A DNA stretch of 64,000 nucleotides from Amycolatopsis sp. WQ 127309 (GTDB taxonomy: Bacteria; Actinomycetota; Actinomycetes; Mycobacteriales; Pseudonocardiaceae): contig NZ_CP095481.1 in the NCBI RefSeq assembly GCF_023023025.1, positions 9,933,001 to 9,997,000 on the forward strand, in the 5' to 3' direction. Shown here in pieces: positions 33,074 through 59,769 of this stretch; the first letter of the stretch is position 1, and every line of letters begins with the position of its first letter. The translations under genes were made by a program, and so were the position numbers. The notes under the pieces are model-generated. The model saw nothing but the letters and a program-made list of their open reading frames with translations. It searched no databases and was not told the DNA's origin.

Positions 33074-33110
33074 GTTCTCTCCTTTGTCGTGGGCTACCGA
33101 TCCGGGAAAC

Positions 33111-34265: not shown

Positions 34266-35427
34266 TGGACCTCCTTCCCCGCCCGGCCGCCCGGCCGAGC
34301 TGTGCGACGGCTTGGTCGATGCAGGCCAGCAGCGCCTCGGCGTCGGCGATGTCGATCGCCGGGAACATGCCCATGCGCAGCTGATTCCGGCCGAAACTGC
34401 GATGGGGCTCCAAGTCGAGAACGCCGTGCGCCCGCAATCCGGCGATCAGTCCCGCCGCGTCGATGTGCTCGGCGAACTCAATGGTCGCGACCACCGGCGA
34501 CCGCTGTTTCGGTTCGGTGACAAACGGTGCCGCATAAGGCGAATCTTCGGCCCAGTCGTAAACCAGCTCCGCTGTGCTCGCCGCCTTGGCCGCGGCGCCA
34601 GGCAGTCCGCCGAGGCCGAGCAGCCAGTCGATCTGCTCGGCGAACAAGAACAGCGACGCCACCGACGGTGTGTTGAACGTGAGGTCACGAGCCGAGTGAT
34701 CGATGGCGGCAGGCAGACTGAAGAACTCCGGAATGTACCTGCCAGCCGCTGCGATTTCTTCGGCGCGGGCCACGGCGGCCGGCGACATCAGGGCGATCCA
34801 GAGTCCGCCGTCGGCACCGAAGCACTTCTGCGGTGCGAAGTAGTAGACGTCGAACTCCTCGGGCCGCACGAGCATGCCCCCCGCCGCGCTGGTGCCGTCG
34901 ACCAGCACCAGGGCATCGCCGCCGGCCCCGGGAACCCGGTGGATCGGCATGGCCACGCCGGTCGAGGTTTCATTCTGCGTCAGCGCGTAGGCGTCGACGT
35001 CCGGGTCACTCCGCGGATCCGGGTGGGTTCCGGGTGGGCTCTCGATCACCGACGGCTCCGCCAGCCAGGGCGTTGCCCGGTCGACCGCGGTGAAACGGCT
35101 GGAAAACTCACCGAAGGACAAGTGCTGGGCCCGGTTCCGGATGAGTCCGTGGGTGGCGATGTTCCAGAATGCGGTGCCGCCACCGTTGCCGAACACCACC
35201 TGGTAGTCCGAGGGCAGTTCGAACAGCTCTCGCAGCCCCGCGCGGACCCGGCCGAGCAACACGCGCACCGCACCGCGGCGGTACGAGGTCCCGAGGAAGT
35301 CCGCGCCGCGCGAGGCCAGCGCGTCCAGTTGCTCGGGCCGTACCTTGGCCGGACCGCAGCCGAATCGACCATCGGCGGGCAACAAGCCGTCCGGGAGGCT
35401 GAAATTCACTACTCGATCGTCGGGCAC
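34258..35427 (-). CDS. SerC-like (phosphoserine) aminotransferase
   Basis: 389 residues from GTG 35427. Class V PLP fold of actinobacterial SerC: VFGNGGGTAFWNIATHGL near the phosphate-binding site, LTQNETSTGVAMPI, LVDGTSAAGG with the pyridine-N Asp, and YYFAPQKCFGADGGLW with the Schiff-base Lys. C-terminal RNQLRMGMFPAI fits substrate binding. Housekeeping SerC makes phosphoserine; this copy sits in a biosynthetic operon and probably aminates a 3-keto-phosphate pathway intermediate. It is the first gene of the operon SerC-oxidase-aldolase B-Nudix B-HAD-MFS. Confidence 0.9.
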   Translation of the reverse strand: MPDDRVVNFSLPDGLLPADGRFGCGPAKVRPEQLDALASRGADFLGTSYRRGAVRVLLGRVRAGLRELFELPSDYQVVFGNGGGTAFWNIATHGLIRNRAQHLSFGEFSSRFTAVDRATPWLAEPSVIESPPGTHPDPRSDPDVDAYALTQNETSTGVAMPIHRVPGAGGDALVLVDGTSAAGGMLVRPEEFDVYYFAPQKCFGADGGLWIALMSPAAVARAEEIAAAGRYIPEFFSLPAAIDHSARDLTFNTPSVASLFLFAEQIDWLLGLGGLPGAAAKAASTAELVYDWAEDSPYAAPFVTEPKQRSPVVATIEFAEHIDAAGLIAGLRAHGVLDLEPHRSFGRNQLRMGMFPAIDIADAEALLACIDQAVAQLGRAAGRGRRSNA

Positions 35428-35480
35428 AACACAGGATCGTAAGGCTTACCCACGGCGGAGTCCGCGTCCGACAGCTCTTA

Positions 35481-35520
35481 TGTGGGACAATTATGGAGCA
35501 TATATGGACTACCTGTGGAC
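35481..35520. promoter_or_regulatory. SARP box: four heptamers with 11-bp period
   Basis: TGTGGGA (35481), TATGGAG (35492), TATGGAC (35503) and TGTGGAC (35514) are direct repeats spaced exactly 11 bases apart in the 196-bp divergent region between the SerC-like gene and the UDP-glucose dehydrogenase gene. Heptamers at one-turn spacing are the known recognition pattern of SARP activators, and a SARP gene is in the cluster. The surrounding DNA is AT-richer than its neighbours. Confidence 0.75.
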
Positions 35521-35623
35521 CTTCGAGAAATTGACGATTGTCAGCCGGTTTCCCACTTGACCTCGACGAGCGGGACGACGCAGTATCGGACCTGCAGCCC
35601 GTGCCGCCGAGGGGATCCCAGCT

Positions 35624-36958
35624 ATGCGAATCACCGTTCTCGGGACCGGCTACCTGGGTGCCACACACGCAGCCTGCATGGCCGAAATGGGGTTCGAAGT
35701 TCTCGGCATGGACACCGATCCGGAGAAGATTTCCGCACTCTCCGCCGGAACTCCGCCGTTCTACGAGCCAGGCCTCGAAAGCCTTATCCGAAGTCATCTG
35801 AAGTCCGGAAGACTGCGTTTCACGTCCTCGTACAGGGATATCAAGGAGTTCACCGCCGGCGAGCCGGCCATACATTTTCTCTGCGTCGGGACGCCGGAGA
35901 GGAAGACCGACAGGGCAGCAGATCTGCGTTTTCTCCAAGAAGCGATCGACCGGCTGGCCCCCACCCTGAACGGGCCGAGCCTGGTGGTCGGCAAATCGAC
36001 GGTCCCGGTCGGGACGGCCGAGCAGCTCGCCCGCCGCCTGAGCCGGCGCGCGCCCGCCGGCGCACACGTAGAACTGGCGTGGAATCCGGAATTCCTGCGG
36101 GAGGGCTTCGCCATCGGCGACACACTCAGACCAGCTCGGCTGGTGTTCGGGGTGAATTCACCGCAGGCCGAATCCCTCCTGCGCGAGGTCTACCGGATCC
36201 CCCTCGCCCGCGGCGTGCCACTGGTAGTCACCGATCTGCCCACGGCGGAACTGGTCAAGGTGTCCGCCAACGCGTTCCTGGCCACCAAGATCTCGTTCAT
36301 CAACGCCATCGCCGAGATCTGCGAGACCACCGGCGCCGATGTCACCCACCTCGCCCGCGCTCTCGCTCACGACCCGCGCATCGGCGGGCAGTATCTGCTG
36401 CCCGGCCTGGGTTTCGGTGGCGGCTGTCTGCCCAAGGACCTCCGGGCCTTCCGGTTCAGGGCCGACGAGCTCGGCGTCGGGCACTCGCTGGGATTCCTAC
36501 GCGAGGTGGATGCCATCAACCTCCGTCGGCGGCGCCGGGCGGTCGACCTCACGCGCGAACAGTGCGGCGGCTCCCTCCGCGGCAAACGTGTGACCGTCTG
36601 GGGCGCGGCATTCAAGCCCGGCTCCGATGACATCCGCGATTCGCCCGCACTCAGTGTCGCCGCGTCCATCCAGCTCCAGGGCGGAGAGGTGACTGTATAC
36701 GACCCAAAGGCCTCCGACAACGCACGCAAGGACTTCCCGAACCTGAACTACGCGAGCTCCGCGGTCGAGGCCGCGACTGGCGCCGAGGTGCTGTTGCACC
36801 TCACCGAGTGGCGGGAGTTTCAGGAGCTCGATCCGGAGATGGTCGGCGCCGTGGTCGCCAACCGCCAGGTCATCGACGGCCGCAACACGCTGGACGCCCA
36901 GCGGTGGAACGCGGCCGGCTGGACCCTTCACGCACTCGGGCGCCCGACTCGTCGATGA
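35624..36958 (+). CDS. UDP-glucose 6-dehydrogenase
   Basis: 444 residues from ATG 35624. The N-terminal Rossmann fold starts MRITVLGTGYLGATHAACMA; FLCVGTPERK, VVGKSTVPVGTAEQL, ELAWNPEFLREGFAI and the catalytic GFGGGCLPKD (Cys) are all intact, and the C-terminal UDP-binding domain has VTVWGAAFKPGSDDIRDSPA. It oxidises UDP-glucose to UDP-glucuronate with 2 NAD+. It is divergent from the SerC operon with a SARP-like array between. UDP-glucuronate could be a donor for the GT4 enzyme or a precursor of the core. Confidence 0.93.
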   Translation: MRITVLGTGYLGATHAACMAEMGFEVLGMDTDPEKISALSAGTPPFYEPGLESLIRSHLKSGRLRFTSSYRDIKEFTAGEPAIHFLCVGTPERKTDRAADLRFLQEAIDRLAPTLNGPSLVVGKSTVPVGTAEQLARRLSRRAPAGAHVELAWNPEFLREGFAIGDTLRPARLVFGVNSPQAESLLREVYRIPLARGVPLVVTDLPTAELVKVSANAFLATKISFINAIAEICETTGADVTHLARALAHDPRIGGQYLLPGLGFGGGCLPKDLRAFRFRADELGVGHSLGFLREVDAINLRRRRRAVDLTREQCGGSLRGKRVTVWGAAFKPGSDDIRDSPALSVAASIQLQGGEVTVYDPKASDNARKDFPNLNYASSAVEAATGAEVLLHLTEWREFQELDPEMVGAVVANRQVIDGRNTLDAQRWNAAGWTLHALGRPTRR

Positions 36959-43045: not shown

Positions 43046-43568
43046 CTCCGTCGTGCCGGCCATGGACACGATTCCGAGAGCCGACGGGGCACCTATGAAC
43101 CTGGGAGGTGGGCCAGGCCAAAATACCCGTCGTTCTCAAACGCGTGGTCTGACCTGCTCGCCGAGCCGCGCCGACGTCTCGCCCGATTAACCCGCTGTGC
43201 CCCGCCCTGTCGCGAGTTTCCCGTCCACGCCCGATCCAGCCGGCCCACCCGAAACAACTAGGCGGCATCACCTCCAGCGTCGCCAAGCCAACCGTGCCGA
43301 CCTCGCGACCGAGCTGCAGCGGCTAGAAGATCCGACGCGCCTACCCGCCTCGATGCACCAAGTGGACACTCATCCACGCCCACCGAGCGGCCAGACAGCG
43401 CCCGTCAACACCCCCCCCGGCGCACCATCCCGAGCCGGCGAAGTTCTTGTCAGCTTGACCCAAACAGTCCAGGACGCTACCGTCTGCATGCCGAACTACT
43501 TGTCACTATGACCATAAGCGTTCGACCTGGCTCAGATGGACCTTCGGATCGCGAAAGCAAGGAGCGCC
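43046..43568. other. Intergenic, promoter-containing
   Basis: No intact gene. A candidate promoter is TTGACC (43455-43460), 17-base spacer, TACCGT (43478-43483). It is followed by a possible leaderless seven-codon ORF at 43488. A Pro/Thr-rich ORF at 43197-43511 has no domain and is not supported. Confidence 0.5.
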
Positions 43569-44324
43569 ATGACCGCAGACAGAGGCACGCTCACAGCGCT
43601 GACCACTGTCAGACACGCCTTCCGACTGTTGGTTGAGCACTCACCAGTCACTCTGGACGGTTGGGCCTTGTCTCCAGACCTGCCTGGACAAGTGCTCTCG
43701 TTGGGCGAGGTCGCCGACCTTCTCGGCAGCCGAGCGACAGACCGCGCAATCAAGGACGCGATCTGGGCCGAGCTGATCCGGCTAGCGCAGACGGGAACGC
43801 AAATCTGGCAGATTATCGCCGCAGGCCTACTCGCTCCTAGCCTCGCAGCGACAGCACGCCGTGTCGTCGTCGAACACGGCGGAGATCCCGCCGAAATCGA
43901 CTCGGAGGTCGCGCTCGGCTTCATCGAGGCGTTGCGAGTGGTTGATCCTTCAATGCGACGCCTGCTCCCTCACCTCAGGCGAGTCGCGTACGACCGAGCA
44001 ATGAGCGCGGTCCAGCCACCCTCCTCCGACTGCGCCAGGAATGCAGCGTTCAGGATAGTGCCAATAGCGGCACCAAGAGGACACATTGACCTCGTTCTCG
44101 CCGAAGCCATCGGCTACCACGTCCTGACCCGCGTCGAAGCTGAACTGATCGGGAGAACCAGAATTGAGGGCTTAAGCTTGATCACTGCAGCGGAACAGCT
44201 CGGTTTGCCCACTCAGCAATGCCGAGAAGCTCGTGCGAACGCCGAGTTCAAGCTTCACGAGTTTCTCCGATCACCTACCTATCGCGACCACCACGCCAGC
44301 GTCGGCCCCGACAGGCTCCGATGA
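43569..44324 (+). CDS. Sigma-factor-like HTH protein, unknown role
   Basis: 251 residues from ATG 43569 with AAGGAG upstream. It is all-helical. Segments LSLGEVADLLGSRATDRAIK and, near the end, VLTRVEAELIGRTRIEGLSL, ITAAEQLGLPTQQCREARAN, AEFKLHEFL resemble sigma-70 region 4-type HTH proteins. A recognisable region 2 is absent. It may be a sigma-like regulator of the downstream operon, which starts 73 bases after its stop. Confidence 0.65.
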   Translation: MTADRGTLTALTTVRHAFRLLVEHSPVTLDGWALSPDLPGQVLSLGEVADLLGSRATDRAIKDAIWAELIRLAQTGTQIWQIIAAGLLAPSLAATARRVVVEHGGDPAEIDSEVALGFIEALRVVDPSMRRLLPHLRRVAYDRAMSAVQPPSSDCARNAAFRIVPIAAPRGHIDLVLAEAIGYHVLTRVEAELIGRTRIEGLSLITAAEQLGLPTQQCREARANAEFKLHEFLRSPTYRDHHASVGPDRLR

Positions 44325-44361
44325 GCTCGCTCAACAGGCAAACCCTAGCCAATCAGACTTC

Positions 44362-44390
44362 TTGTCAGTTGAACTTTAAGTCCGTACCGT
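44362..44390 (+). promoter_or_regulatory. Promoter of leaderless Nudix-STAND operon
   Basis: TTGTCA (44362-44367), 17-base spacer, TACCGT (44385-44390). The expected start of transcription, about 7 bases after the -10 element, coincides with the GTG start codon at 44397, and no ribosome site precedes that codon, so the mRNA is probably leaderless. A similar TTGTCA/TACCGT arrangement occurs before the 43569 gene. Confidence 0.6.
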
Positions 44391-44396
44391 GAGCTT

Positions 44397-45158
44397 GTGA
44401 ACAAGTGGGACATCCCCCGCAGCGCTGTCGCAGTCGACCTGACAGTGCTAACAGTTCGGGACCGCAGCCTCCAAGTCCTCGTGGTTACGCGAGCCAACCC
44501 TCCTTTTCAGGACCGGATCGCCTTACCTGGCGGTTTCTTGGAGGACGGCGAGGATCTCGACCAGGCCGCGCACCGTGAACTGGCCGAGGAGACTGGCTTG
44601 AACGGTGCCGATCTTGCCATTCGCCAGCTAAGAAGCTACGGAGCGCCCGATCGTGATCCACGCGGGCGTGTAGTGTCGGTGAACTATGTCGCGCTGATGC
44701 CCGACCTCCCACTACCCGTTGCCGGCGGGGATGCCAAAGCCGCGCATTGGGTTCCCGTTCAGGATGTTCTCTCCGATCCGGACAAGCTCGCGTTCGATCA
44801 CCACCGATTGCTCATCGATGCGGTCGACTACGCCCGCAGCCAACTGTCCGCCACGACTCTCGCAACGAAATTCTGTCCTCCGGAGTTCACGATTGCGCAG
44901 CTGCGCGAAGTGTACGAGATCGTCTGGGATGTCGAGCTCGATCCATCGAACTTTCATCGCAAGGTCACCGGCTCACGCGGATTCCTTATACCGACAGGAA
45001 CTCGAGCAGAAGGGACCGGAGGACGCCCGGCCAAGCTCTACCGCGCCGGAACCGGGATCCGGCTGCACCCGGCCCTTCTTCGCGACTCGGTGACCGACGA
45101 GCCGCATGACACCGCTACATCATCACGCAGAGCAGGAAAGGCGCCGAATCGCCGATGA
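44397..45158 (+). CDS. NrtR-type Nudix + winged-helix protein
   Basis: 253 residues from GTG 44397 (MNKWDIPRSAVAVDLTVLTV). N-terminal Nudix domain with an intact box: GFLEDGEDLDQAAH then RELAEETGL. The C-terminal winged helix is LATKFCPPEFTIAQLREVYE with DPSNFHRKVTGSRGFL. This is the architecture of NrtR regulators that sense ADP-ribose or NAD metabolites; many NrtR proteins have lost catalysis, whereas this box looks active. The stop overlaps the ATG of the STAND gene (ATGA), so it is co-translated with it and may be its repressor and metabolite sensor. The Arg/Thr-rich last 40 residues look variable. Confidence 0.88.
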   Translation: MNKWDIPRSAVAVDLTVLTVRDRSLQVLVVTRANPPFQDRIALPGGFLEDGEDLDQAAHRELAEETGLNGADLAIRQLRSYGAPDRDPRGRVVSVNYVALMPDLPLPVAGGDAKAAHWVPVQDVLSDPDKLAFDHHRLLIDAVDYARSQLSATTLATKFCPPEFTIAQLREVYEIVWDVELDPSNFHRKVTGSRGFLIPTGTRAEGTGGRPAKLYRAGTGIRLHPALLRDSVTDEPHDTATSSRRAGKAPNRR

Positions 45159-48100
45159 ACACCGCTCACGACACTGTGCTGGGCACGGTCGTCATCTGCA
45201 CCGCCGTTGCCGACGAGTACCGAGCCGTACGCGAGCACCTGGTCGAGCCGCTCGACGAAAGCCAGGAACGTGGCACCCTCTACGAAATCGGCGCTTTCCC
45301 CACTGAACGCGGCCGCTGGACCGTGGTCCTGACCCAGACCAGCGCTGGCAACACCGAGGCCGGTGTTCAGCTCGAGCGCGCGATCGGTGCGTTCCGCCCG
45401 CAGATCGTGTTCTTCGTCGGTGTGGCGGGAGGGATCAAGGATCTCAAGCTCGGCGACGTGGTTGCGGCTGACGATATCTACGGCTACGAGTCCGGCAAGG
45501 ACACAGCAACCGGATATCGGCCGCGCATCAAGACGTACCCGAGTACGTACCAGCTCATCCAGCGCGCACATCAGATCGCCCGGGACGAGGCCTGGCAACA
45601 CCGGATCTTGCCTACAATGCCTACACCCCGGCCGACAGCGCTGGTCAAGCCGATCGCGGCCGGCAGCAAGGTCGTCGCCGATCAGCGGTCGGCCACTGCA
45701 GACTTTCTGCGCCAGCATTGCGGCGATGCCGTCGCTGTCGAGATGGAAGGGCACGGCTTCCTCTACGGCGCTTACGTGAACAGTGATGTTGTCGCACTGG
45801 TCGTACGCGGTGTTTCCGATCTGCTCAGTGACAAGACCGGGGAGGCTGACCGCGAATGGCAGCCTATTGCCTCGCGAAACGCGGCCGCGTTCACCTTCGA
45901 ACTGCTGAGTCGGATGCCACAGACCGACACTGAACGCGAACGGGACTGCGAAAACGACCGCGAAGCGCTACGCGAAGTCACGGCGTCGAACCTCCGCGCC
46001 CTCGACACCCACACGATGTTGCCGGGGGCGGAGGAAGATACCTCCGTCGATCGTGCGGAGCTCCCCGCATTGCTCGCCACAGAAGACACGTTTGTTCTTA
46101 CCGGCGAACCGGGTTGTGGTAAGACGGGTGTGCTGAACCAACTGGCCCATAGGATGATCGACCGTGGCGATGAAGTCGTCCTTCTGACCGTCGATAGCAT
46201 CGGGTCCGAAGCAGCCTCGGTTCGCGACGACATCCAGCTAAGCCAATCGCTGCTCGCCGTGCTTCGCGAATGGGTCGGCGAATCACACGCGACCTTGTTC
46301 ATCGACGGCTTGGACGCCACCCGAGGCGGTCCTCTCCCTTGGCTGGTCAGGCTGATCCAGGGACTCGTCGGTTCGCGGTGGCGAGTAATCGCGACGATGC
46401 GGCGGTTCGACCTTCACCACAGTCCGATATGGACCGACGTATTCTCCGGCCCACCGGTTTCAGATCAGCGGGAACACGTCGATGAAACGCTTCGGCGCGT
46501 CCGCCACTTCCTGCTAGGGAACCTCGCGTCCGATGAGCTCACCGTGCTCGCCGGCAAACATCCCGGCGTCGCGCAGCTCGTCTTTGGCGCGAACGAGCAC
46601 ATGCTCGACCTCATTCGCAACCCCTTCAACCTCCGGCTTGCCTGTGAACTACTGATCGCCGGAGTCAGCCAAACCTCGCTGGCCGATACACGCGACCAAC
46701 TCGAGCTGTTGCAGGAGTACTGGCGCGTCCGTGTAGCCCGGAGCACTGACAGCGAAGCACGTCTGCGGGCACTGGAATGCCTCAGCGAGACGATGTTGGA
46801 ACAGCGAACCCTCCGCGCGAGTGGCCGCTGCGTACCACATGCCCTCCTCGATGCGAGAACAGCGCTCGTACAGGACGGAGTGCTTCACGAGCTTCCGGGC
46901 CGTCTGAAGGCCAGCGGGCCACCGTTGCTCACCTACTCCCACCACATCCTCTTCGACTACAGCGTCGCCGCACTCATCTTCGCCGTCGATGACCGATCAC
47001 AGCTGGTAACACGGCTGCGAACCGACCCCAATCTCGTGCTTGTGGCACGACCGAGCATCGACCTGCACCTGACGGACCTCTGGCACGTCGATCAAGACCG
47101 CTCCACCTTCGCAGCCACGGTCGCGTCGCTGGCGCAGCATGGCGACAGCCTCGCTGGGGTCGCCGCTGTTCGGGTTCTCGTTTCCGAGGTGTCAACAGAC
47201 GACGACGTGCAATGGCTCACAGACCTCTCTCACAGCGACAGCGGAACGTTTTCGGCGATCATCGGGTGGATCGCAGGAGTCCTTGACGCAGAGGACGAAG
47301 CAGCGCGTAAACGCGCCCGCAGCAACGTCGGCTTGTGGACCAAAGTGCTTGCCAGCGCCACCGCACAGGTGACAACCAACTTCGAGATCCCACTGGTGAA
47401 CCAGACGTTTCGCCTACTAAAGCAGATCGACAAACTATCGACGATGCATCCCGGGGCAGTAGCGGCTCACGTGTGGGCGGAATGCGTGGTCGGCTTGATG
47501 TCCGTAGCGCTCGAGGAACCGTCCGGACGCGAACGGCTGGCAACCGCAGCGGCGAGATTTCTCCCTCGCGTGATCGCCATCGAGCGGTCACACAGCCATC
47601 TCCTCAGGGCGACACTTGAGCCGGAGATCATGGTGCTTTGGTCACCTCGCTACCTCTACCACTATGTGGAGGCTGTCGACGTGATCGCCGCTGCAGACCC
47701 TGACCTGGCCCGCGACTTGCTCGTGAAAGTACTCCGATGGAGTGACGACAGCGACGACGTCAGTCCTTTGATCCAGGGCATCGTGACGATGACCACAACT
47801 CGCCGGCAGGACCTCGAGATGGCGAAGTACGAGGTCGGGCGGAAGATGGCCGCATTCATCGCCGCCGCGGACATCGCACGCTCCGTCGAAGTCCTCGCCG
47901 AGGCTCTTCGTCCGGAATCCGACGAGCCGACCACGGAAGTCGGCGGCTATACGATCTCCGTGCGGGCCGCCCAGGGCCAAGTCGGCCTCTACGGCTCCTG
48001 GCTCCAATATGGCCCGGGCCACGGCGCCGCGAAAGCCATCCTCACCGCGTTCGTCGCTGCCTTGCTCGAAGTCCCCATCGGAGACGCAGACCTCGACGCG

Positions 48101-48862
48101 CTCGTCGAAGATCTGGTCCGGCGGATTCAGCACCCTGAGGCCTGGCAGGCACTGCTGGTCACCGCCGCGGAGAGGCCCGCCGACTTGGGGCACGCATTTC
48201 TTACCGTGTTGGGGAGCGGAGGACTGATTGCGCACTCTCAGACCCGTGCCGCCGCCGGCAAGCTGATCCGGGCAGTCGGTCCCTCGATCTCCACCGCCGA
48301 AGAGCACGATCTCGAGCAAGCCATCCTGGCCGGCCCCAGCCACTTCGTACACCCGTCGGACGAGGCGACGGAACATCTCTTGGACCAGATGTGCGGTTGC
48401 CTCGACATCGACAAGATCCAAGATTCCGCGCTCGCCGAGCGAGCACATCTGCAGGCCGAAGCCGGCGGACCACCTCCCATCCCCCAACCTCACGGGCCCG
48501 TAGCGGGCATCGAGCCCCTTACCCTGCAGGATTACCTGGGGAAACAGGACGCAGACCTTACCGACTTCCAGCAACGTGAGGCGCTCGACACGCTCCGCAC
48601 CCTGGTCGACACGCTGCCTACCACCCCGTCTCCGGACCAGCAGACCGCTCTCGAACAGGCACTCCGCCAAGCTGTTGCCGCCGGAGTAGGCGGTCCCGAC
48701 CACCGTCTGCCAGGCGCCGAAATGATCTTCCGCGCCATCGAAGCTCTAGTCCGCGCCAAACCACCGGAGCCGGATTCCGGCTTGGCCAAACTGATCGTTC
48801 CCCTGCTGCTCTCCGCAGCGGACTCAGACGACACGCCGGATGAGGAAGAGCCCGCATCATGA
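45155..48862 (+). CDS. Nucleoside phosphorylase-STAND NTPase, defence candidate
   Basis: 1235 residues from ATG 45155. Residues about 10-255 form a PNP_UDP_1/MTA-SAH nucleosidase-like domain: TQTSAGNTEAGVQLERAIG, VFFVGVAGGIKDLKLGDVV, VEMEG (about 195) for ribose binding and RGVSD (about 218) with the catalytic Asp. A STAND/AAA-type NTPase follows, with Walker A GEPGCGKTG (about 317) and Walker B LFIDGLD (about 381). A winged-helix-like part and long helical repeats fill residues 560-1235. In known defence STAND proteins the N-terminal domain is the effector and the repeats sense an invader. Here the effector would cleave or phosphorolyse nucleosides or nucleotides. Cytoplasmic, co-translated with the genes on both sides. 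Confidence 0.85.
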   Translation: MNTAHDTVLGTVVICTAVADEYRAVREHLVEPLDESQERGTLYEIGAFPTERGRWTVVLTQTSAGNTEAGVQLERAIGAFRPQIVFFVGVAGGIKDLKLGDVVAADDIYGYESGKDTATGYRPRIKTYPSTYQLIQRAHQIARDEAWQHRILPTMPTPRPTALVKPIAAGSKVVADQRSATADFLRQHCGDAVAVEMEGHGFLYGAYVNSDVVALVVRGVSDLLSDKTGEADREWQPIASRNAAAFTFELLSRMPQTDTERERDCENDREALREVTASNLRALDTHTMLPGAEEDTSVDRAELPALLATEDTFVLTGEPGCGKTGVLNQLAHRMIDRGDEVVLLTVDSIGSEAASVRDDIQLSQSLLAVLREWVGESHATLFIDGLDATRGGPLPWLVRLIQGLVGSRWRVIATMRRFDLHHSPIWTDVFSGPPVSDQREHVDETLRRVRHFLLGNLASDELTVLAGKHPGVAQLVFGANEHMLDLIRNPFNLRLACELLIAGVSQTSLADTRDQLELLQEYWRVRVARSTDSEARLRALECLSETMLEQRTLRASGRCVPHALLDARTALVQDGVLHELPGRLKASGPPLLTYSHHILFDYSVAALIFAVDDRSQLVTRLRTDPNLVLVARPSIDLHLTDLWHVDQDRSTFAATVASLAQHGDSLAGVAAVRVLVSEVSTDDDVQWLTDLSHSDSGTFSAIIGWIAGVLDAEDEAARKRARSNVGLWTKVLASATAQVTTNFEIPLVNQTFRLLKQIDKLSTMHPGAVAAHVWAECVVGLMSVALEEPSGRERLATAAARFLPRVIAIERSHSHLLRATLEPEIMVLWSPRYLYHYVEAVDVIAAADPDLARDLLVKVLRWSDDSDDVSPLIQGIVTMTTTRRQDLEMAKYEVGRKMAAFIAAADIARSVEVLAEALRPESDEPTTEVGGYTISVRAAQGQVGLYGSWLQYGPGHGAAKAILTAFVAALLEVPIGDADLDALVEDLVRRIQHPEAWQALLVTAAERPADLGHAFLTVLGSGGLIAHSQTRAAAGKLIRAVGPSISTAEEHDLEQAILAGPSHFVHPSDEATEHLLDQMCGCLDIDKIQDSALAERAHLQAEAGGPPPIPQPHGPVAGIEPLTLQDYLGKQDADLTDFQQREALDTLRTLVDTLPTTPSPDQQTALEQALRQAVAAGVGGPDHRLPGAEMIFRAIEALVRAKPPEPDSGLAKLIVPLLLSAADSDDTPDEEEPAS

Positions 48863-49956
48863 TGTCCTGGACACCGACGCCGAAACGGACAGCTATCAGC
48901 ACACTGACAACCCTTTGGTGTCAATCCGCCTGGCGGTCGTCGCAGCACGCGAACCTGCTCCGTGAGGTTCTCCGGGCCAAGATCAACGATGCTGACGACG
49001 TCATCCGGCTCCACGTCGCCCAGGTGGCGCGGCGACTTTCCCTCGAGCCAGAAGGTGGATTTGAGCTCGTGCGCGACCGTCTTCTCGTCGAAAAGCAGCC
49101 TCTTATCGCCGCTGTACTCCTCCGAGAGTTTTGGGACTGCGGCTCAGATCGGCCCGCAGAGGTCGACGGTGTCCTAGCAAGCCTCGTGAATCAGGAACCT
49201 TGGATGGAGCTGCTCAACGAGATCGAATCCGATTCGGATCAACTCGAACCGCTCGAAATCATCACCTCACTCGCCTTGATGCTCGCCATCCGACATCAGA
49301 CACCCACCGCCAAGGAGCTGGTCCGAACTTGGCTCTCCGATCCCATCGCGACGGCGGCCGCCCAGCATGCTGTCGACAACCTGCGCACATGGACTGAACT
49401 GCCACCTGAACAAGCCGTGGAACGCGCACGTGCTTTCGACATGCTGGAGGCTGCGACCGCTGCCCTGGCCCAACTTCGCCATACAGCTACTGACTCCCCG
49501 GACCGGCTGGGCAAGATCTTTCTCACGGTCGACCTCATCTCCCGCAACATCAACCTCGCCTCAGAAGCGGTTCTAGTGACCAGCGGTGATCCCACCGAAG
49601 ATCGCGAATTCGCCGCCAGAGCCCTCACCGTATTGGACGGGATCGCTCAATTCAAGCATCCCTCGATCACGCACTTCCTGATCGAAGCACTGGGCCATCT
49701 TGCCGCCGCCGACCCGTCTCGAGCCTTCCACACAGCAGCAACAGCGGTGGGCGCAGGCGACGAGTACACGTACGACTCAGTCGCAGCCGCCGAAACGACC
49801 AAATTCATCGAGCGCTACCTGGCCGAGTTCCGCGAAGTTGTGATCGCTGATAACAAGCTGCTGACATCGATCCGGTCGGTACTCCATGCCTTCGTTGACG
49901 CTGGCTGGCCTTCGGCCATTTCTCTCGCCTATCGGCTGAGCGAAGCGTTTCGATGA
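48859..49956 (+). CDS. Helical-repeat protein, continuation of the STAND sensor
   Basis: 365 residues from ATG 48859 in an ATGA overlap. It is almost entirely helical with HEAT/ARM-like pairs (DVIRLHVAQVARRLSLEPEG, HFLIEALGHLAAADPSRAF). There is no catalytic motif, signal or membrane span. It resembles the C-terminal solenoid of the preceding NTPase and starts where that ends, so it is either a separate sensor subunit or a split part of one ancestral protein. It is the last gene of the operon. Confidence 0.8.
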   Translation: MMSWTPTPKRTAISTLTTLWCQSAWRSSQHANLLREVLRAKINDADDVIRLHVAQVARRLSLEPEGGFELVRDRLLVEKQPLIAAVLLREFWDCGSDRPAEVDGVLASLVNQEPWMELLNEIESDSDQLEPLEIITSLALMLAIRHQTPTAKELVRTWLSDPIATAAAQHAVDNLRTWTELPPEQAVERARAFDMLEAATAALAQLRHTATDSPDRLGKIFLTVDLISRNINLASEAVLVTSGDPTEDREFAARALTVLDGIAQFKHPSITHFLIEALGHLAAADPSRAFHTAATAVGAGDEYTYDSVAAAETTKFIERYLAEFREVVIADNKLLTSIRSVLHAFVDAGWPSAISLAYRLSEAFR

Positions 49957-51024: not shown

Positions 51025-52445
51025 TCATTCATTATCTGAACTTTGACTCGCTAAACGTTCTTGAACCAGTAATCCCCGTAGCCTATCCGTGAAGTTTGCA
51101 TAATCTTCAATAGGTTTATTTGGCTCTTGTCGAAGATGAAAGTCACGCCGGATACTTGAGATTTTTTGTCGAACAACGTCGTGAGATGCAATATCAGCAA
51201 GGGCTGCTTCAATTTCTCGCAGGCGAGCATCAGCCAGAGATCGCGTCGCACCCTCTTGATAGTCTTCAATGAAGCTTCGAATGACGCGGCCCATTCGCTT
51301 AGAGCGGCGACGCTCAGCTTCCTCGATAGCAGCCGAATCGAGAAGAGAAGTTAGCTCCCCGAGCAACTTGGTGAAGTTCTCCTCCAAAGCAGGGACCCCA
51401 ACCGGGCGTGGCTCGTTGCGATCTAATCCTTCAACATATGCGACTACCTCCCTCGCAAAACCCACTTTGTCTATAGTTTCGCCGTTCATCTTATCTGAAA
51501 ATAGCTCGCGTAGTTCATCCCAGAGTGGCCGGCTCGACGACTCGACTCTTGCCTTTAAATCAACTTCCTTAAGTACCTCAGACGCCTCCACGTCAGAGCC
51601 AATAACCTGGACCGCATAGCGACGGGCGGCGAGAATAGCAATGCGGGGCGGGATCAAGTCTTCAATTTCGACGATCTTTCCAAAGTTTGAAGCGCCAGTA
51701 ATTTCCGGGCTCTGCGAAGCGGCCCACACACCTAATCTTACGATGTATTTTTGATCGAGCACCGGCCTTCTATTGACGTCACTCCTTCGCAATTTTTCGG
51801 CAGCCCGCTCACCGTCGATGTCCCCGTCAAGCAATGCAACACAAGGCGGCTTCATCGGATCCCGCCCTCGCGCAAGGTAAGCGATGTACGGCACGCTATC
51901 CGCACTCCCCGCTGGAACAATTGTAACTTCGTTCAGATCGAGAAGACTAGCCGAGGGATACCCCCCAGCACGAAGCGCGTTTGACATTCCAGCCAACAGC
52001 ACCTGATCTGCAACACCCTCGACAATGAGGTTCTTTCCACTTATGAAAGCGGTCTCGGCAACGTAAGCCCCAAGAGAGGAGCGCAGTGGTTCATAGTGTG
52101 TACGCGCGACGTCTTTTACCACCCTGGTCCCCTCTTCTTGAGTTCCTTTATCGAAAACACGAAGACGATGAGCTGCATTCTTGTTGATCAGAAAAGGTGA
52201 ATGGGTGACATAAACAACTTGATCACGCCGTACGCCGCTGTCAGAAACGGCGAAGTTCTCCAGAACGCGCAACAAATCCTGCTGCCCAGCGTTAGATAGA
52301 TACGCGTCCGGCTCATCCATCAAGAGTATTTCAGATCGAGCAGGGTCTCGGCGGTGCGCGCGCAATTGCACAAAGTACGCCAAGAAGTGCGTGAGCCCTC
52401 GACTGCGCTCAGCGAATGAGTACTCGCTTTCAGTTCTATCCTGAA
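51025..52445 (-). pseudogene. OLD-family nuclease, C-terminal part (Walker B + TOPRIM)
   Basis: Continuation of the 52320-53405 ORF in another frame. From about 52445 it reads TIQDRTESEYSFAERSRGLT, then HFLAYFVQLRAH, Walker B EILLMDEPDAYLS, and a VVYVTHSPFL switch region. The TOPRIM domain is LIVEGVADQVLLAGMSNAL with the acidic LLDGDIDGERAAEKL. The last about 150 residues are helical. An internal ATG at 52383 (MAYFVQL) could start a separate product but would lack part of the signature motif. OLD-family ATP-dependent nucleases cut DNA and occur in anti-phage systems (OLD itself, GajA). Confidence 0.8.
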
Positions 52446-53405
52446 TCGTAAAACCAATTCGCGCTCGCGAGGCGATACGCGCAGCGCGAAATCATTATCT
52501 TGAGTCCACCAACGAGATAGGTTCAGATGACGACTCAAAGACTGATTTATCTTCCCGACCAGGCCGCTCACATCGCCTTCGTTTCCAGCAGAGATGGCTT
52601 CCTGGAGATCCTTGAAGATCTCCGGATCGACACGAGCAACGTCGACTAGCAGCTTTCTTGCCAATTCGCGTTCGTCTCGTTCTTTCTGCTTCTTTGCAGA
52701 ATCAACAGCAGCAGTTCCACGAGACGAGAAGAACTCAAGGAACTTTGGAACGAACGGGCCGAACTCATTGGCATCCGACGCCCGAACGGTTTCAGCCATA
52801 TCAATGAATCGGCTTCGCGTACGCCGGTCGCTCAGAGCGCCGCTGTTACCACCCCAAAGGGTCGAGATCGGCACACTGTCAGGTATGGCGACTTTCGTAG
52901 AGAATCGAATTACGCGAGGAAAAATATCCTCAACAATCTTCAGTTCATCGTCGTCAAGTTCGACCCTCTCGTTGCCCAGGCTAACGAAAGGCCTGCCAGC
53001 ACCCGGGCGCATGAAGAGGAATCTTTGCCCAGGACTAGCGCCTACTCCAAATTCAGCAAGCGTACTAGCTTCCGACTGCGATGAGATGATGAATTCTGCA
53101 CCCACATCGGGAAGCCTGATTTCATGGGTCTCTATCGAATAGAGCTGAGAGTGACGACAGAAATCACTGCGCCGAACACTCTTTATTCCAACAATGCATT
53201 CTATTGCATCAAGGAGATGACTTTTTCCAGACTCGTTTGCGCCAACTACTGCTGTAACCTCTGGATCCACATTCAAGCGAACATGCGGATACCAGCCCTC
53301 CTCCAACTGCTCCCAGTCATGACGTTGAGCATTTTCTTTGGCGCGTCGCTCATAGTCGAAGTTGAACGACTTAAAGAAGCGAACGTACACCCGAGCAAGT
53401 CGCAC
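52320..53405 (-). pseudogene. OLD-family ATPase, N-terminal part
   Basis: Starts GTG 53405 with GGGAGG upstream. MRLARVYVRFFKSFNFDYER and Walker A GANESGKS (55-62) mark an SMC/RecF-like ABC ATPase; a helical insertion spans about 230-300. After VSPRERELVLRF (about residue 318) the frame turns to unrelated sequence and stops, while true homology continues one frame over from the TTTT run near 52450. A single -1 shift there would fuse the ORFs into about 790 residues, normal for this family. Loss of function, programmed slippage or a sequencing error cannot be separated here. Confidence 0.8.
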
Positions 53406-56153: not shown

Positions 56154-56320
56154 GTCCCCTCCCTTCGACCTCACGACTGATGAAATCAGTCAAGCGGGAG
56201 TCAAATTCGACGACCAGAGCAGCAGCGCGGCATTTGCGTGGCGCGGACGTCGCACTAGCCGGTCTGATCTGCGGTTACTGCTGCTACATTGATCTGGTCA
56301 CGCAGGGTTGGAGGTTGGTC

Positions 56321-57802
56321 ATGCCCATAGGGCGACGTCGTGACGGGCTGATCTCAGCTCGCAAGGTCGCCGGCCTCACCCAGGAGGGTCTGGCGGACGT
56401 GCTGCACGTCGACCGCTCGACCGTTGCTCGCTGGGAGGCGGGCGACTACGTGCCACTCCCCTACCTCTGGCCGAAGCTCGCGAACGTGCTCGGTCGTTCA
56501 CGAGACGAGTTGCAGGCCCTGATCGGTCCGAGCGCCGTCACGCGGGAGTTCAGCCCCGACGACTCGTTCGAGCCGGTGTTCACATGGCTCGATCGGCACG
56601 CGGGGTGGCCGTTGGGGAGAGCCCGTGAGCAGGTGTACGCGAGCGCAGTCGCCTCATCTCGGAACCGGCAGAATCCGCTGCGAAGCGTCATCGCGGATGC
56701 CCTGGATGACTACTACGCGCCGCCGACCAGCGACCACCGGCCCTACGTCGCGCGCTGCGGTCAGGTGGAGGTGACCACCAGCGTCCTTACGCGGCCAGCG
56801 TGGCTGGATCTCGCCTGCTCGCTGACGCCCACGAGCGAGCACACCGCCTTCGAGGGCGGCAGAGCGAGGCCATCGGCGGTAGTCGATGAGCGAGCTGCGG
56901 TGCAGCGTCTCGCGGACGCAGCAGCGGGCGGCATTCGGATCACCGACGTTCCCCTCTACCGGCTGCTCGAGGTCGACCCGCAGCCCGGAGCACTGCGGGC
57001 GAAGGTCGGGATCGCGTCGTTTGTCGAATACGCGCTTGGCGTCGACCTGCTGGAACGCGAATTGATCGAGCACTTGGCGAGCGGTCGCAGCGCCCGTCCA
57101 GGGCACATGCCACTCCGCGACCGCCAGCTGCCCGACGTGTCCGCGGTGCTCGACCTGCCCGGCCGTCTCTGCGCGGGTGGCGTGCTGGCGTTGACAGCGA
57201 TCGCGCGCCCGGCGGACCCGTTCCGTGGTGGCGCCGACTTCGTGCTGCTGGTGCAGAAGAGGTCAACAAAGGTCGTGAACACGGCCAATCGTCTGTCGGT
57301 GATCCCGAAAAGCTTCCACGGGCCGCTCGCGGACCAGCGGGCAGACGCCCGGATCGGAGCTACCCTGCGCCGCGAGCTTGAGGAGGAGCTGTTCGGCAGG
57401 ACGGACGTCGACCGGTCCGCCGGAGATCTCCGGGTCGCCGACCCCATGCATCCGACCAGGCTTTCCGCGCCGATGCGGTGGTTGACCGAGCAGCCGGGAC
57501 GGCTGCGGATGGAGTGCACCGGGTTCGGGCTCAACCTGGTCAGCGGGAACTACGAGTTCGCCAGCCTGGTCGTGATCGAGGATGAGGAGTTCTGGCCGCA
57601 GTTCGGTGGCGACGTTGAGGCGAACTGGGAGGCGGCCGGCCTACAGCAGTATTCGACGCTCGACGGTGACTTGGTCACCGAACTGATCGGTGACGAAAAC
57701 TGGAGCAACGAAGGACTGTTCGCGTTTCTCCAGGGGTTACGTCGGCTCGCCGAGATCGGCGGTGATCGGGTGAAGATTCCCGCCGTCGAATTAAGTTGCT
57801 GA
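56321..57802 (+). CDS. XRE-Nudix regulator paralogue 1
   Basis: 493 residues from ATG 56321 with GGAGG 6 bases upstream. HTH_3 domain: LISARKVAGLTQEGLADVLH then VDRSTVARWEAGDYVP. A middle region of about 190 residues follows (EPVFTWLDRHAGWPLGRARE, SVIADALDDYY). The C-terminal part is Nudix-like: LALTAIARPADPFRGGADFV, VIPKSFHGPL and TLRRELEEELFGR, where REUxEE is present but the following Gly is one residue later than in the canonical box. It ends with a conserved RMECTGFGLNLVSGNYEFA. In pSAM2 the conjugal immunity protein Pif carries a Nudix motif, so a role in element immunity or control is plausible. Converges on the cupin gene, overlapping it by 12 bases. Confidence 0.8.
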   Translation: MPIGRRRDGLISARKVAGLTQEGLADVLHVDRSTVARWEAGDYVPLPYLWPKLANVLGRSRDELQALIGPSAVTREFSPDDSFEPVFTWLDRHAGWPLGRAREQVYASAVASSRNRQNPLRSVIADALDDYYAPPTSDHRPYVARCGQVEVTTSVLTRPAWLDLACSLTPTSEHTAFEGGRARPSAVVDERAAVQRLADAAAGGIRITDVPLYRLLEVDPQPGALRAKVGIASFVEYALGVDLLERELIEHLASGRSARPGHMPLRDRQLPDVSAVLDLPGRLCAGGVLALTAIARPADPFRGGADFVLLVQKRSTKVVNTANRLSVIPKSFHGPLADQRADARIGATLRRELEEELFGRTDVDRSAGDLRVADPMHPTRLSAPMRWLTEQPGRLRMECTGFGLNLVSGNYEFASLVVIEDEEFWPQFGGDVEANWEAAGLQQYSTLDGDLVTELIGDENWSNEGLFAFLQGLRRLAEIGGDRVKIPAVELSC

Positions 57803-58141
57803 GGGCCAGCGAACGGTCAGGACGACCGAATTCGCCAACGCTTCCCAAGAATGGTCGATGCCCGGTCCCCACATCACGTAGTCACCCTGGCGTGTCATAA
57901 TCTTGCCACCGCCGGTGACCTCTACACGGAACTCGCCGGAGATCAGCATCACCAGCGTTGTTCGCTGGTCGTCGGAGGTCCACTCGGGGCGCTTGTCCCC
58001 CGCGGGATGGTTGGCCCACTTGACTTCGACGTCCTTGGAGGCTCGGACGCCCTGCGACGGGTCGATGAAGTGGCCGACCAGCCAGCCGCGCGTGCCGGCC
58101 GCGTCTTCGTTGGCATTGCCGGCGGTCCAACCGTCGCTCAC
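57791..58141 (-). CDS. Small cupin-domain protein
   Basis: 116 residues from GTG 58141 in a GTGA overlap with the upstream XRE-Nudix gene. VSDGWTAGNANEDAAG leads to a cupin barrel: FIDPSQGVRASKDVEVKWAN, TLVMLISGEFRVEV, QGDYVMWGPGIDHSWEALAN. The G-x-D...G.DH pattern may bind a metal. Probably a small-molecule sensor or isomerase-like partner; cytoplasmic. Confidence 0.78.
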   Translation of the reverse strand: MSDGWTAGNANEDAAGTRGWLVGHFIDPSQGVRASKDVEVKWANHPAGDKRPEWTSDDQRTTLVMLISGEFRVEVTGGGKIMTRQGDYVMWGPGIDHSWEALANSVVLTVRWPSAT

Positions 58142-59700
58142 TGGCCTATCTCCCATTCGATCGCGGGCAGTTTTACGCGCTCTCCGCCGATTTCCGCAAG
58201 GCGCCGAAGCCCTTGCGTCATGGCGAACAGTCCTTCGTTGCTCCACGCTACATCACTCAACAACTCGGTGACGAGTTCCGCATCGGTAGTCGAATACTGA
58301 CGAAGAGTCGCGGATTCCCAGTTTGCTTCGACCACTCCGCCATAGCGTGTCCAGAATTCTTCGTTGTCGATGACGATGAGGCTGGCGAACTCATAGTTCC
58401 CGCTCACGAGGTTCAGGCCGAACCCGGTGCACTCCATGCGCAACCGGCCGGGCTCGGCGAGGAGCCAGCGCATCGGCTCCGTGAGCCTGGTCGGGTGCAT
58501 CGGGTCCGCGGTCAGCGTGTCGGCGACGGTGTTGTCGGCGTCCGGCCGGCCGAACAGCTCCTCTTCCATCTCTCGCCGCAGGGTCGCGCCGATCTGGGTT
58601 TCCCGCCGTACGTCGGTGAGCGACTGGTGGAAGCCCTTTGGGATGACGGCGAGCCGGCGCGTGGCGTTGAGTACGTGGCCGGAGCGTTCCTGGACCAAGA
58701 GCACGTAGTCCGCTTCGCCGCGGTACGGGTCGGCTGGCCGCGCGATGGCCGTCAAGGCGAGGGCTCCGCCTGCGCAGAGTCGGCCGCCGACGTCCAGGAC
58801 GGCGCCGACGTCCGGGAGGTAGCGATCACGAAGGGGCAGCGACGTCGTGTCGCCGGCCGCGAGCGCGTCGAGCAGCTCGCCTTCGAGCAGGTCCATCGTC
58901 AGGGCGTAGTGGACGAAGTGGTCCACGCCGAACGTGCCGCCGAGGTGGCGTTCACGGATGTCCGTGCTCAGCAGCCGGTAGAGCGGCGCGTTCATGAGCC
59001 GCGTATTCATGGCCACCGTCTCGGCCAGCCGGTTAACCGCTGCACTCGTCGCGTGCTCGTCGAGCACTTCCCGCGCGTCTGGCCGGGCGCTCGCGATCGT
59101 GAGCCCGTCGCGCGGCGGGCGTAGCTCGCACGCCAGATCGAGCCAATCAGCGCAGGTCAGGATGCTAGTGTTCACGGCCTGCTCGCCGCAGCTTCCGGCA
59201 TACAAGCCGTGGTCACCGTGACGTCGACCGTAGTACTCGGCGAGTGCGTCGGTCACGGCGCGTTGGTCGACCCACCCGCGGCGAGTGGCCCGGGCGTACG
59301 CCTCCTGCGCGTCGACGCGCGCGGCCTGCTCGGCGACGGCGCGGCGTGCGGCGCCAGGGCTCCGGTAGGCGTGCTGGTCGAGCCATTCGAGAGCCGCGCC
59401 GATGTGGGGGTCCGCGGCAAGTCGTCGGTCGGCTTCCCTCGTGTCCGGCCTGGTGTGGGCGGCCGGCCCGTCGCCGGTCAGCTCGGCGAAGCGGGCTCGC
59501 TCGGCGTCCGACGCTCGCTCATACGCGGTGTCGAGGACCTGTTGCATCTCTGACTGCGGGCGAAGATCTGGCTTCTGGTGCCAGGACGCGACCGTACGCG
59601 CGCCGATTCCGAGCTTCTCGGCGAATTTCTCATTGCTCAGCCGCAACGCGGATTGCAGCGCCGACGCTGACCGTCCGGTCCAGCCGCCTACCCCGCTCAT
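58138..59700 (-). CDS. XRE-Nudix regulator paralogue 2
   Basis: 520 residues from ATG 59700 (MSGVGGWTGRSASALQ), preferred because the frame up to GTG 59748 overlaps an operator-like repeat. HTH: LRLSNEKFAEKLGIGARTVA SW. It matches paralogue 1 from the middle region on: WLDQHAYRSPGAARRAVAEQ, LPLRDRYLPDVGAVLDVGGR, VIPKGFHQSL, TLRREMEEELFGR, RMECTGFGLNLVSGNYEFAS, and the C-terminus LFAMTQGLRRLAEIGGERVK. It is the first gene of an operon with the cupin gene. The two paralogues face each other around the cupin gene. Confidence 0.82.
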   Translation of the reverse strand: MSGVGGWTGRSASALQSALRLSNEKFAEKLGIGARTVASWHQKPDLRPQSEMQQVLDTAYERASDAERARFAELTGDGPAAHTRPDTREADRRLAADPHIGAALEWLDQHAYRSPGAARRAVAEQAARVDAQEAYARATRRGWVDQRAVTDALAEYYGRRHGDHGLYAGSCGEQAVNTSILTCADWLDLACELRPPRDGLTIASARPDAREVLDEHATSAAVNRLAETVAMNTRLMNAPLYRLLSTDIRERHLGGTFGVDHFVHYALTMDLLEGELLDALAAGDTTSLPLRDRYLPDVGAVLDVGGRLCAGGALALTAIARPADPYRGEADYVLLVQERSGHVLNATRRLAVIPKGFHQSLTDVRRETQIGATLRREMEEELFGRPDADNTVADTLTADPMHPTRLTEPMRWLLAEPGRLRMECTGFGLNLVSGNYEFASLIVIDNEEFWTRYGGVVEANWESATLRQYSTTDAELVTELLSDVAWSNEGLFAMTQGLRRLAEIGGERVKLPAIEWEIGQ

Positions 59701-59732
59701 TGCCGCCCCAAAGCGCTCTTGTGCAGCGGATA

Positions 59733-59769
59733 TGCAGTGGTTGCGCACTGCTTCTGCACTGGTTGTGCA
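59733..59769. promoter_or_regulatory. Two 15-bp direct repeats, operator-like
   Basis: TGCAGTGGTTGCGCA (59733-59747) and TGCACTGGTTGTGCA (59755-59769) differ at two positions and start 22 bases apart, about two helical turns. Each also has TGCA/TGCA-like dyad ends. They lie just upstream of XRE-Nudix paralogue 2 and end 76 bases from the stop of the XRE gene at 59845. Confidence 0.6.

What the first reader, a model, noticed from the sequence alone, without database searches (positions are those of the whole stretch)
44362..49956. Nudix-wHTH / nucleoside phosphorylase-STAND / repeat-protein operon, a candidate defence system
Seen: three ATGA-coupled genes whose order is an NrtR-type Nudix regulator with an intact Nudix box, a 1235-aa PNP-like plus STAND NTPase, and a separate helical-repeat protein. 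Known: STAND NTPases with N-terminal effectors are anti-phage sensors, and NrtR senses ADP-ribose/NAD metabolites. Inference: invader recognition by the repeats activates nucleoside or nucleotide cleavage, while the Nudix protein either represses the operon until NAD/ADP-ribose pools change or removes a signal nucleotide. The fixed coupling of a Nudix sensor with a PNP-STAND effector is not an arrangement I know as a named system.
Basis: partly seen in the sequence, partly recalled or inferred. Interest (0 to 1): 0.88.

Follow-up and report, generated by a model that had tools for sequence, protein, structure and literature searches.

The report
Nudix-repressed ATP-cleaving bacterial immune operon
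In this bacterium, a predicted immune sensor protein carrying an enzyme domain predicted to destroy ATP shares an operon with a Nudix protein that likely represses it, and the same gene pairing recurs with other sensor-like parts in dozens of related bacteria, where it likely serves as a self-regulated defence against viruses.

Summary
The three ATGA-coupled genes are real: NrtR-like Nudix-wHTH, PNP-STAND (1235 aa), helical-repeat protein. Gene 3 is the split-off C-terminus of the STAND receptor: both match one PADLOC candidate family (PDC-M54A), and fused relatives exist. The Nudix gene's conserved partner is the PNP effector, not the STAND. In 80 genus genomes, 53 of 63 PNP places have such a Nudix gene within 3 kb, before stand-alone PNPs, PNP-TPR, PNP-NB-ARC-TPR and PNP-STAND proteins. 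Four STAND loci without PNP lack both the Nudix gene and its operator. A palindrome, CTTnTnGTCAnnnTGACnAnAAG, marks 36 of 47 Nudix upstream regions (0.4% of shuffles). Its three best matches in the window are here, two before an overlooked 262-aa gene that so probably joins the regulon. The STAND model resembles NLRC4/NLRP3 and Avs4. Most likely this is an Avs-like abortive-infection receptor with an ATP-nucleosidase-type effector under a Nudix repressor that probably senses ADP-ribose or a related ribose phosphate. ATP cleavage, ligand, repression and phage phenotype are untested. New variant of a known kind; the Nudix-PNP circuit was not found in the papers searched.

The parts
43443..43465 (.). 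Predicted operator 1 (palindrome), upstream of the 262-aa gene
   Evidence: Matrix from 35 sites outside the window; second-best place in the 64-kb window, 25.6 bits; 3 mismatches to the consensus in the own-genome scan
43496..43518 (.). Predicted operator 2, 53 bp from operator 1; paired as in L003, L078, L079, L080, L083
   Evidence: Best place in the 64-kb window, 26.2 bits; 1 mismatch, best site of the whole genome; 0 of 5000 shuffles of the region reach its score
43536..44324 (+). 262-aa protein, sigma-region-4/HTH-like C-terminus by eye; no Pfam, PADLOC, NCBIfam or PHROG family; first gene behind the two strong operators, so probably in the same regulon
   Evidence: homologues in 49 of 80 genus genomes, none in the other Nudix-PNP loci fetched
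44358..44380 (.). Predicted operator 3, 16 bp before the Nudix start codon
   Evidence: Third-best place in the window, 21.6 bits; 3 of 5000 shuffles of the region reach its consensus score
44397..45158 (+). NrtR-like Nudix-winged-helix protein (253 aa), intact Nudix box; predicted repressor of the operon
   Evidence: PF00293, PF21906; NF050029 120 bits against a cut-off of 400; PDB relatives 2fml, 3gz5, 5bs6 AraR
45155..48862 (+). PNP-STAND NTPase (1235 aa): predicted effector, switch and first part of the helical sensor
45188..45907 (+). PNP (nucleoside phosphorylase/nucleosidase fold) effector domain, residues 12-251; E21, M197/E198 and S221/D222 invariant in 45 rows
   Evidence: PF01048; PADLOC model 'Effector, PN-superfamily' 2.7e-14
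46037..47026 (+). NACHT/STAND NTPase core (about residues 295-624): Walker A with K323, Walker B with D384/D387
48859..49956 (+). Helical-repeat protein (365 aa): separately encoded C-terminal end of the receptor; fused to the STAND in P0010 and L050
   Evidence: PADLOC PDC-M54A 5.6e-25, profile 1382-1657

Best explanation
This is an operon of likely immune function in which a predicted STAND receptor, encoded in two pieces, carries an N-terminal PNP enzyme domain predicted to cleave ATP once its helical repeats likely detect an invader, while the Nudix-winged-helix protein of the same operon would keep it repressed through conserved palindromic sites. Proposed sequence. (1) In resting cells the Nudix-wHTH protein probably binds the palindromes at 43443, 43496 and 44358 and holds the operon low; the sites are shown, binding is inferred. 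(2) When ADP-ribose or a related ribose phosphate rises, as when NAD or ATP is broken down during infection, the Nudix protein likely lets go and more receptor is made; inferred from NrtR. (3) The helical sensor, made of the C-terminus of gene 2 plus gene 3, likely binds an invader protein and drives STAND oligomerisation; inferred from the Avs4 and NLR fold. (4) The clustered PNP domains would cleave ATP/dATP to the free base and ribose-5'-triphosphate and stop the cell before the phage matures; inferred from Cap17/Detocs PNP effectors. The conserved unit is Nudix plus PNP; sensor parts differ between loci.
Against: No activity, binding or phenotype is known. By profile the PNP domain is about as close to MTA/SAH nucleosidase (2.8e-15) as to the PADLOC PN-superfamily effector model (2.7e-14). 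Ten of 63 genus PNP places lack the Nudix gene, three of them with PNP domains 66-67% identical to this one, and the four class-sample PNP loci most like ours (44-53%, L052-L055) lack it too, so the regulator is dispensable for some relatives. The operator before the Nudix gene here is the weakest of the three; 11 of 47 upstream regions score below 12 of 17, and L077 and L081 have only a variant palindrome there. Five of 45 Nudix rows have lost a catalytic residue, four of them before PNP-TPR proteins, which speaks against enzymatic removal of a signal as the common role. One class-sample Nudix gene (L068) is convergent to its PNP gene. Defence enrichment was not tested against a background.
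Confidence: 0.6

Rival explanations
1. The Nudix protein acts mainly as an enzyme or antidote: it hydrolyses the product or signal of the PNP effector (for example ribose-5'-triphosphate or an ADP-ribose derivative) and so sets a threshold, and its DNA binding is secondary.
For: The Nudix box is intact here, and both catalytic glutamates are kept in 40 of 45 aligned rows; many PDB relatives by sequence are Nudix hydrolases.
Against: Nudix partners of the PNP-TPR proteins L011-L014 read RKLTQETG; the winged helix is a Pfam match here, and the operator recurs.
Confidence: 0.15
2. The operon is not anti-phage but a stress, developmental or kin-recognition switch of multicellular actinomycetes, with PNP working as an MTA/SAH-type or other nucleosidase.
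For: NTP-dependent conflict systems are reported as preponderant in multicellular prokaryotes (PMC7159879, abstract start, passages); PNP profile scores for MTA nucleosidase are similar; Nudix-PNP pairs without a STAND are common.
Against: Patchy distribution, lower GC than the left part of the window, defence-type neighbours, plasmid-borne STAND relatives, and PADLOC candidate-defence match of 4e-100.
Confidence: 0.17
3. The Nudix gene belongs to an integrative element and serves conjugal immunity as Pif of pSAM2 does; its place before PNP-STAND is incidental.
For: AICEs often carry Nudix genes (PMC3218068, passages); an FtsK-like gene and a serine recombinase at tRNA-Leu lie 12-16 kb to the right.
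Against: The same Nudix-PNP linkage recurs at many loci with the same operator in most.
Confidence: 0.04
4. Gene 2/gene 3 is a recent frameshift or assembly split of one gene, so the operon is decayed.
For: A fused homologue exists (P0010, 1578 aa), as does L050.
Against: A separate gene 3 with the start MMSW or MMTW is found in 13 of 16 aligned rows down to 38% identity.
Confidence: 0.02

Closest known systems
PADLOC phage-defence candidate PDC-M54A
   Same: Gene 2 residues 262-1111 and gene 3 residues 119-365 match successive parts of this 1657-aa model; same STAND core and repeats
   Different: N-terminal 260 residues of the model (REase-like by eye in L049/L050) replaced by PNP; receptor in two genes; Nudix repressor and operators added. 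No paper in the library holds the name PDC-M54
Avs (AVAST) STAND receptors, Avs4
   Same: Best Foldseek match of the model (8dgf, 2.4e-10); N-terminal effector, STAND, helical sensor
   Different: VIA rmsd 16 A over 594 residues; NCBIfam Avs2 cut-off not reached (11.9 of 1000); sensor split over two genes; PNP effector
PNP effectors Cap17 / Detocs (ATP nucleosidases) and NLR-like PNP systems
   Same: PF01048 domain with conserved catalytic residues fused to an NLR-like protein; the table in PMC10952713 lists NLR-like systems among those with PNP
   Different: No SLOG domain and no two-component genes; none of the passages that I read describes a Nudix repressor with them
NrtR, Nudix-related regulators of NAD metabolism
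   Same: Nudix plus NrtR_WHD domains
   Different: Not beside NAD genes; operator unlike the palindrome before the nadA-linked core homologue of the same genome; equivalog cut-off not reached; Nudix box intact, unlike that core homologue
ARG (ADP-ribosylglycohydrolase) conflict operons with Nudix-HTH or WYL-HTH repressors
   Same: Nudix-HTH transcription factor governing a conflict operon (PMC9503650, section 31 read)
   Different: No ARG, phosphatase or chaperone family among the 8 genes scanned; the effector is PNP

Membership tests
STAND NTPase receptor | NACHT/NB-ARC-type NTPase fold with Walker A and B | tested here: met
STAND NTPase receptor | C-terminal superstructure-forming repeats | tested here: met
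   Helical solenoid in gene 2 model and all-helical gene 3 model
Avs (named AVAST families) | Reaches the curated cut-off of a named Avs model | tested here: not met
   NF041813 Avs2 11.9 bits against 1000; gene 2 had no Avs4 match in PADLOC up to E 0.1
PDC-M54A | Match over the whole 1657-aa model | tested here: inconclusive
   267-1135 in gene 2 and 1382-1657 in gene 3; effector part 1-266 not matched
PNP_UDP_1 effector | PF01048 above the curated cut-off and catalytic residues | tested here: met
   80.1 bits against 25.1; E21, E198, D222 in 45 of 45 rows
ATP nucleosidase (Detocs/Cap17 type) | Cleaves ATP/dATP to base and ribose-5'-triphosphate | not testable with these tools
   Needs biochemistry; R75 and R124 are suggestive only
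Cap17 | SLOG domain before PNP | tested here: not met
   No SLOG family among the 25 listed of 26 matches up to E 1; PNP starts at residue 12
Detocs | Two-component sensor/response-regulator genes beside the effector | tested here: not met
   None among the 8 proteins scanned at 41.7-53.4 kb
NrtR | Nudix plus NrtR-type winged helix | tested here: met
   PF00293 and PF21906 above cut-offs
NrtR | Orthology to the ADPR-responsive NAD repressor (NF050029 cut-off; NAD genes) | tested here: not met
   120 bits against 400; no NAD gene among the 8 scanned, unlike the core homologue beside nadA
NrtR | ADP-ribose binding | not testable with these tools
   Needs a binding assay

The most novel reading that the evidence does not exclude
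Actinomycetes hold a large, undescribed class of immune modules built on one circuit: a Nudix-winged-helix repressor, a paired palindromic operator about 50 bp apart, and a PNP nucleotide-destroying effector. The repressor reads the effector's own chemistry (ADP-ribose or ribose-5'-triphosphate from cleaved nucleotides), so first cleavage raises effector supply in a positive feedback. Sensors are swapped freely: split STAND receptors as here, NB-ARC-TPR receptors, or membrane partners joined through RHIM/BASS3-like amyloid motifs.
Probability: 0.35. Interest if true: 0.82.

Novelty: new variant of a known kind. Interest (0 to 1): 0.68.

Why it matters
PNP effectors that destroy ATP are a recent theme in bacterial and fungal immunity, but how cells keep such a weapon off is little known. 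Here a Nudix-wHTH gene with a definable operator travels with the PNP gene across many receptor types. That gives a direct handle on two questions: how the lethal effector is regulated, and which nucleotide-derived ligand signals infection. The operator also lets one find such modules, and their unknown genes (such as the 262-aa protein), by DNA pattern alone.

Tried and rejected
Chance neighbourhood of Nudix and PNP: rejected. Gene 2/gene 3 split as a frameshift: rejected. Nudix as the housekeeping NrtR: rejected, since the genome has a separate core homologue next to nadA with another palindrome. Pif-like conjugal immunity: kept as a minor rival. Search for a left end of the integrative element: no repeat of 13 bp or more of the tRNA-Leu region in the window, inconclusive for a serine recombinase. 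Family of the 262-aa protein: no Pfam, PADLOC, NCBIfam or PHROG match up to the limits used; PDB hits only weak, mostly to designed repeat proteins. Contig lengths as a fingerprint for co-occurrence: positive for several (contig 90659 holds all three genes), but misses are not negatives, because proteins are clustered, only about 8000 candidates are scored and two of the lists are cut at 120; so not used for counts. A phage search found a PNP relative in one record. The gene 3 fold search gave only general armadillo/HEAT-type matches, too unspecific to name a ligand. The tail motif was absent in 13 of 33 PNP proteins, and its pattern was written after seeing tails. Limits: the genome searches scored only the best 8 PNP, 2 STAND or 33 Nudix candidates a genome, so counts may be low.
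Full report
What is there. The window lies in an 11.13-Mb single-contig genome. The named nearest homologue of gene 2 (P0003, 87% identical) is from an Amycolatopsis, which suggests that genus, but the genome itself is unnamed. Three genes overlap by ATGA: Nudix 44397-45158, PNP-STAND 45155-48862 and a repeat protein 48859-49956. Pfam gives NUDIX plus NrtR winged helix for the first and PNP_UDP_1 at residues 12-251 for the second. The operon has 62-63% GC, against about 65-76% left of 42 kb; the stretch just right of it (50-54 kb) has 54-55%.

The effector. E21, M197/E198 and S221/D222, the positions that match MTA/SAH nucleosidase catalytic residues (their roles are recalled, not from a call), are invariant in 45 aligned PNP rows (one locus twice); R75 (45 of 45) and R124 (44 of 45) are conserved and fall opposite Leu and Gln in the printed alignment to 4wkb. 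That such PNP effectors degrade (d)ATP is in PMC10952713 (one table passage seen) and PMC11249213 (two passages); PNP as an N-terminal domain of fungal NLRs is in PMC10197012 (one passage). That this protein does so is inference. Relatives of the STAND core carry other N-termini: TM segments, a cyclase-like or an REase-like part (by eye), or are annotated SEFIR.

The Nudix gene goes with PNP. From 80 genomes of the genus (own included) I compared all 63 PNP places (E 1e-20 or better) with the 87 best Nudix places (45-100% identity). 53 of 63 PNP places have a Nudix gene within 3 kb: 32 same strand with Nudix upstream, 21 divergent, none downstream or convergent; they lie in 36 of the 38 genomes that have a PNP place. 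51 of the 87 Nudix places have such a PNP. Of the 36 others, 32 have 52-57% identity and look like one group; in this genome that member sits beside a Band_7 gene. In a class-wide draw of 296 genomes, 22 other genomes had a PNP place, and 16 of these 22 loci carry the Nudix gene within 1.5 kb, one of them (L068) convergent; the four PNP places most like ours (44-53%, L052-L055) do not. The PNP partners differ widely: about 294-aa stand-alone, 380-480 aa, TPR, NB-ARC-TPR and STAND. Nudix and PNP pairwise distances correlate at r 0.79 (0 of 5000 permutations); shared descent of the hosts contributes to this. Four STAND loci without PNP (L047-L050) have no Nudix match in 19 kb. In the Pseudonocardiales MAG with the same three-gene operon (L003/L046), a second Nudix gene 4.4 kb away is divergent to a two-gene unit that includes a second PNP gene (PADLOC PN-superfamily 6.6e-20).

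The operator. Regions upstream of the Nudix genes share a 23-bp palindrome, CTTnTnGTCAnnnTGACnAnAAG, which mostly begins 36-51 bp before the assumed start. 36 of 47 upstream regions score 12 or more of 17, against 37 of 9400 dinucleotide shuffles; the 47 include two Nudix genes not linked to PNP (L075, 14; L076, 9) and exclude six duplicate loci. A matrix from 35 sites outside the window ranks three places first in the 64 kb: 43496 (26.2 bits), 43443 (25.6) and 44358 (21.6); the next has 14.9. In the whole genome the pattern with up to 3 mismatches occurs 8 times against 1 for the reversed control: three here, two before the Nudix paralogue at 7.97 Mb, three elsewhere. Pairs 46-53 bp apart occur here and in L003, L078, L079, L080 and L083; L075 has one 34 bp apart. 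In L078, whose Nudix gene lacks the site upstream, the pair lies between the Nudix and PNP genes; L077 and L081 have no site of this score before their Nudix genes, only a variant palindrome. The nadA-linked core homologue has a different palindrome. So the 262-aa gene at 43536-44324, behind the two strong sites, probably belongs to the regulon. Its family is in 49 of 80 genus genomes but in none of the other Nudix-PNP loci fetched.

An unexpected side branch. In 20 of 33 short PNP proteins the C-terminal tail carries a string such as NARVGQQIGVNLGS or GSVGVQAGHVSGG, and in 13 of 33 the next gene also starts with it; shuffled tails would give 0.5 of 33, though the pattern was written after seeing tails. 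I read this as a RHIM/BASS3-like amyloid signalling motif; the label is mine, based on PMC8086366 and PMC12261475 (passages), and no BASS model was run. Five partner proteins (662-724 aa) have no Pfam family above its cut-off. STAND relatives P0011 and P0013 carry a similar string before the STAND core (by eye). So fused and unfused ways of joining PNP to a sensor may coexist.

Mechanism and what is shown. Shown: gene order and coupling, domains, fold similarity of the models, split receptor, linkage of Nudix with PNP, conserved palindromes at this operon. Inferred: repression, ligand, oligomerisation, ATP cleavage, defence. Nudix-HTH repressors of conflict operons have a precedent in ARG systems, where NrtR-type sensors are said to sense ADP-ribose (PMC9503650, section 31 read). 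I therefore commit to a repressor that likely senses ADP-ribose or a related ribose phosphate. The Nudix box here is intact and both glutamates are kept in 40 of 45 rows, but RKLTQETG in L011-L014 and RELSQETG in L062 show that catalysis is not needed everywhere.

Defence context. Next to the operon on the minus strand lie two OLD/Gabija-like half ORFs. L048 sits beside a TmtA match, L050 beside a type I RM system, and L047 and L048 near HNH-effector-like genes. L049 showed none, but only one neighbour of it was tested. These are single observations, not an enrichment test. The STAND core is rare: 6 of 390 family genomes and 1 of 394 class genomes, the own one counted in each; 15 plasmid records, all below 60% identity.

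Novelty. Full-text searches of the open PMC library found no paper on a Nudix-PNP or Nudix-PNP-STAND system (listings, with passages of the papers named here). PMC7159879 (passages) names Nudix and PNP separately as domains of conflict systems. Most subscription papers are not in that library, so this is weak evidence of absence. Each element is of a known kind; the circuit and its breadth are what is new.

Noticed in passing
window 51025-53405 (-): OLD/Gabija-like ATPase-TOPRIM gene present as two overlapping ORFs in different frames (N-half 52320-53405, C-half 51025-52383), so probably broken or frameshifted; not mended.
   Followed up: partly
window 61706-64000 and L113:2188-4004: FtsK/SpoIIIE-like gene followed by a large serine recombinase that ends at a tRNA-Leu gene: probably the right edge of an AICE-like integrative element; whether the operon is its cargo is open.
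   Followed up: partly
window 56180-57802 (+) and 58138-59748 (-): Two inverted paralogous proteins (540 and 536 aa; Pfam HTH in the first only) whose C-terminal parts hold a RELEEELFG or REMEEELFG string like a Nudix box; no Nudix family found.
   Followed up: no
L075 8252-8929 (G000:C1:7.97 Mb): Nudix-wHTH paralogue beside a Band_7/SPFH gene with two copies of the same operator; similar Nudix genes recur in many genus genomes without PNP and may read the same operators.
   Followed up: partly
L077 8102-11984 (G000:C1:0.54 Mb): A second Nudix-PNP locus in the same genome, followed by a 676-aa protein without a Pfam family; its Nudix upstream region has a variant palindrome TTTACTGTCTATCTGACATTAAT.
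   Followed up: partly
L078, L082, L083, L081 and loci: RHIM/BASS3-like string at the end of PNP proteins and at the start of the next gene's protein, which has hydrophobic stretches by eye and no Pfam family above cut-off.
   Followed up: partly
G042, G048, G025, G069, L080: Nudix gene followed by two PNP genes in tandem, the second with NB-ARC and TPR in L080.
   Followed up: no
L046 12168-15580: Second Nudix-PNP module 4.4 kb from the three-gene operon in a Pseudonocardiales MAG.
   Followed up: partly
phage record KF114878.1 18922-19683: A Leptospira phage encodes a 31%-identical PNP relative.
   Followed up: no
window 24803-36958: Methyltransferase, BTAD-type regulator and UDP-glucose dehydrogenase genes: possibly a natural-product cluster left of the island.
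   Followed up: no
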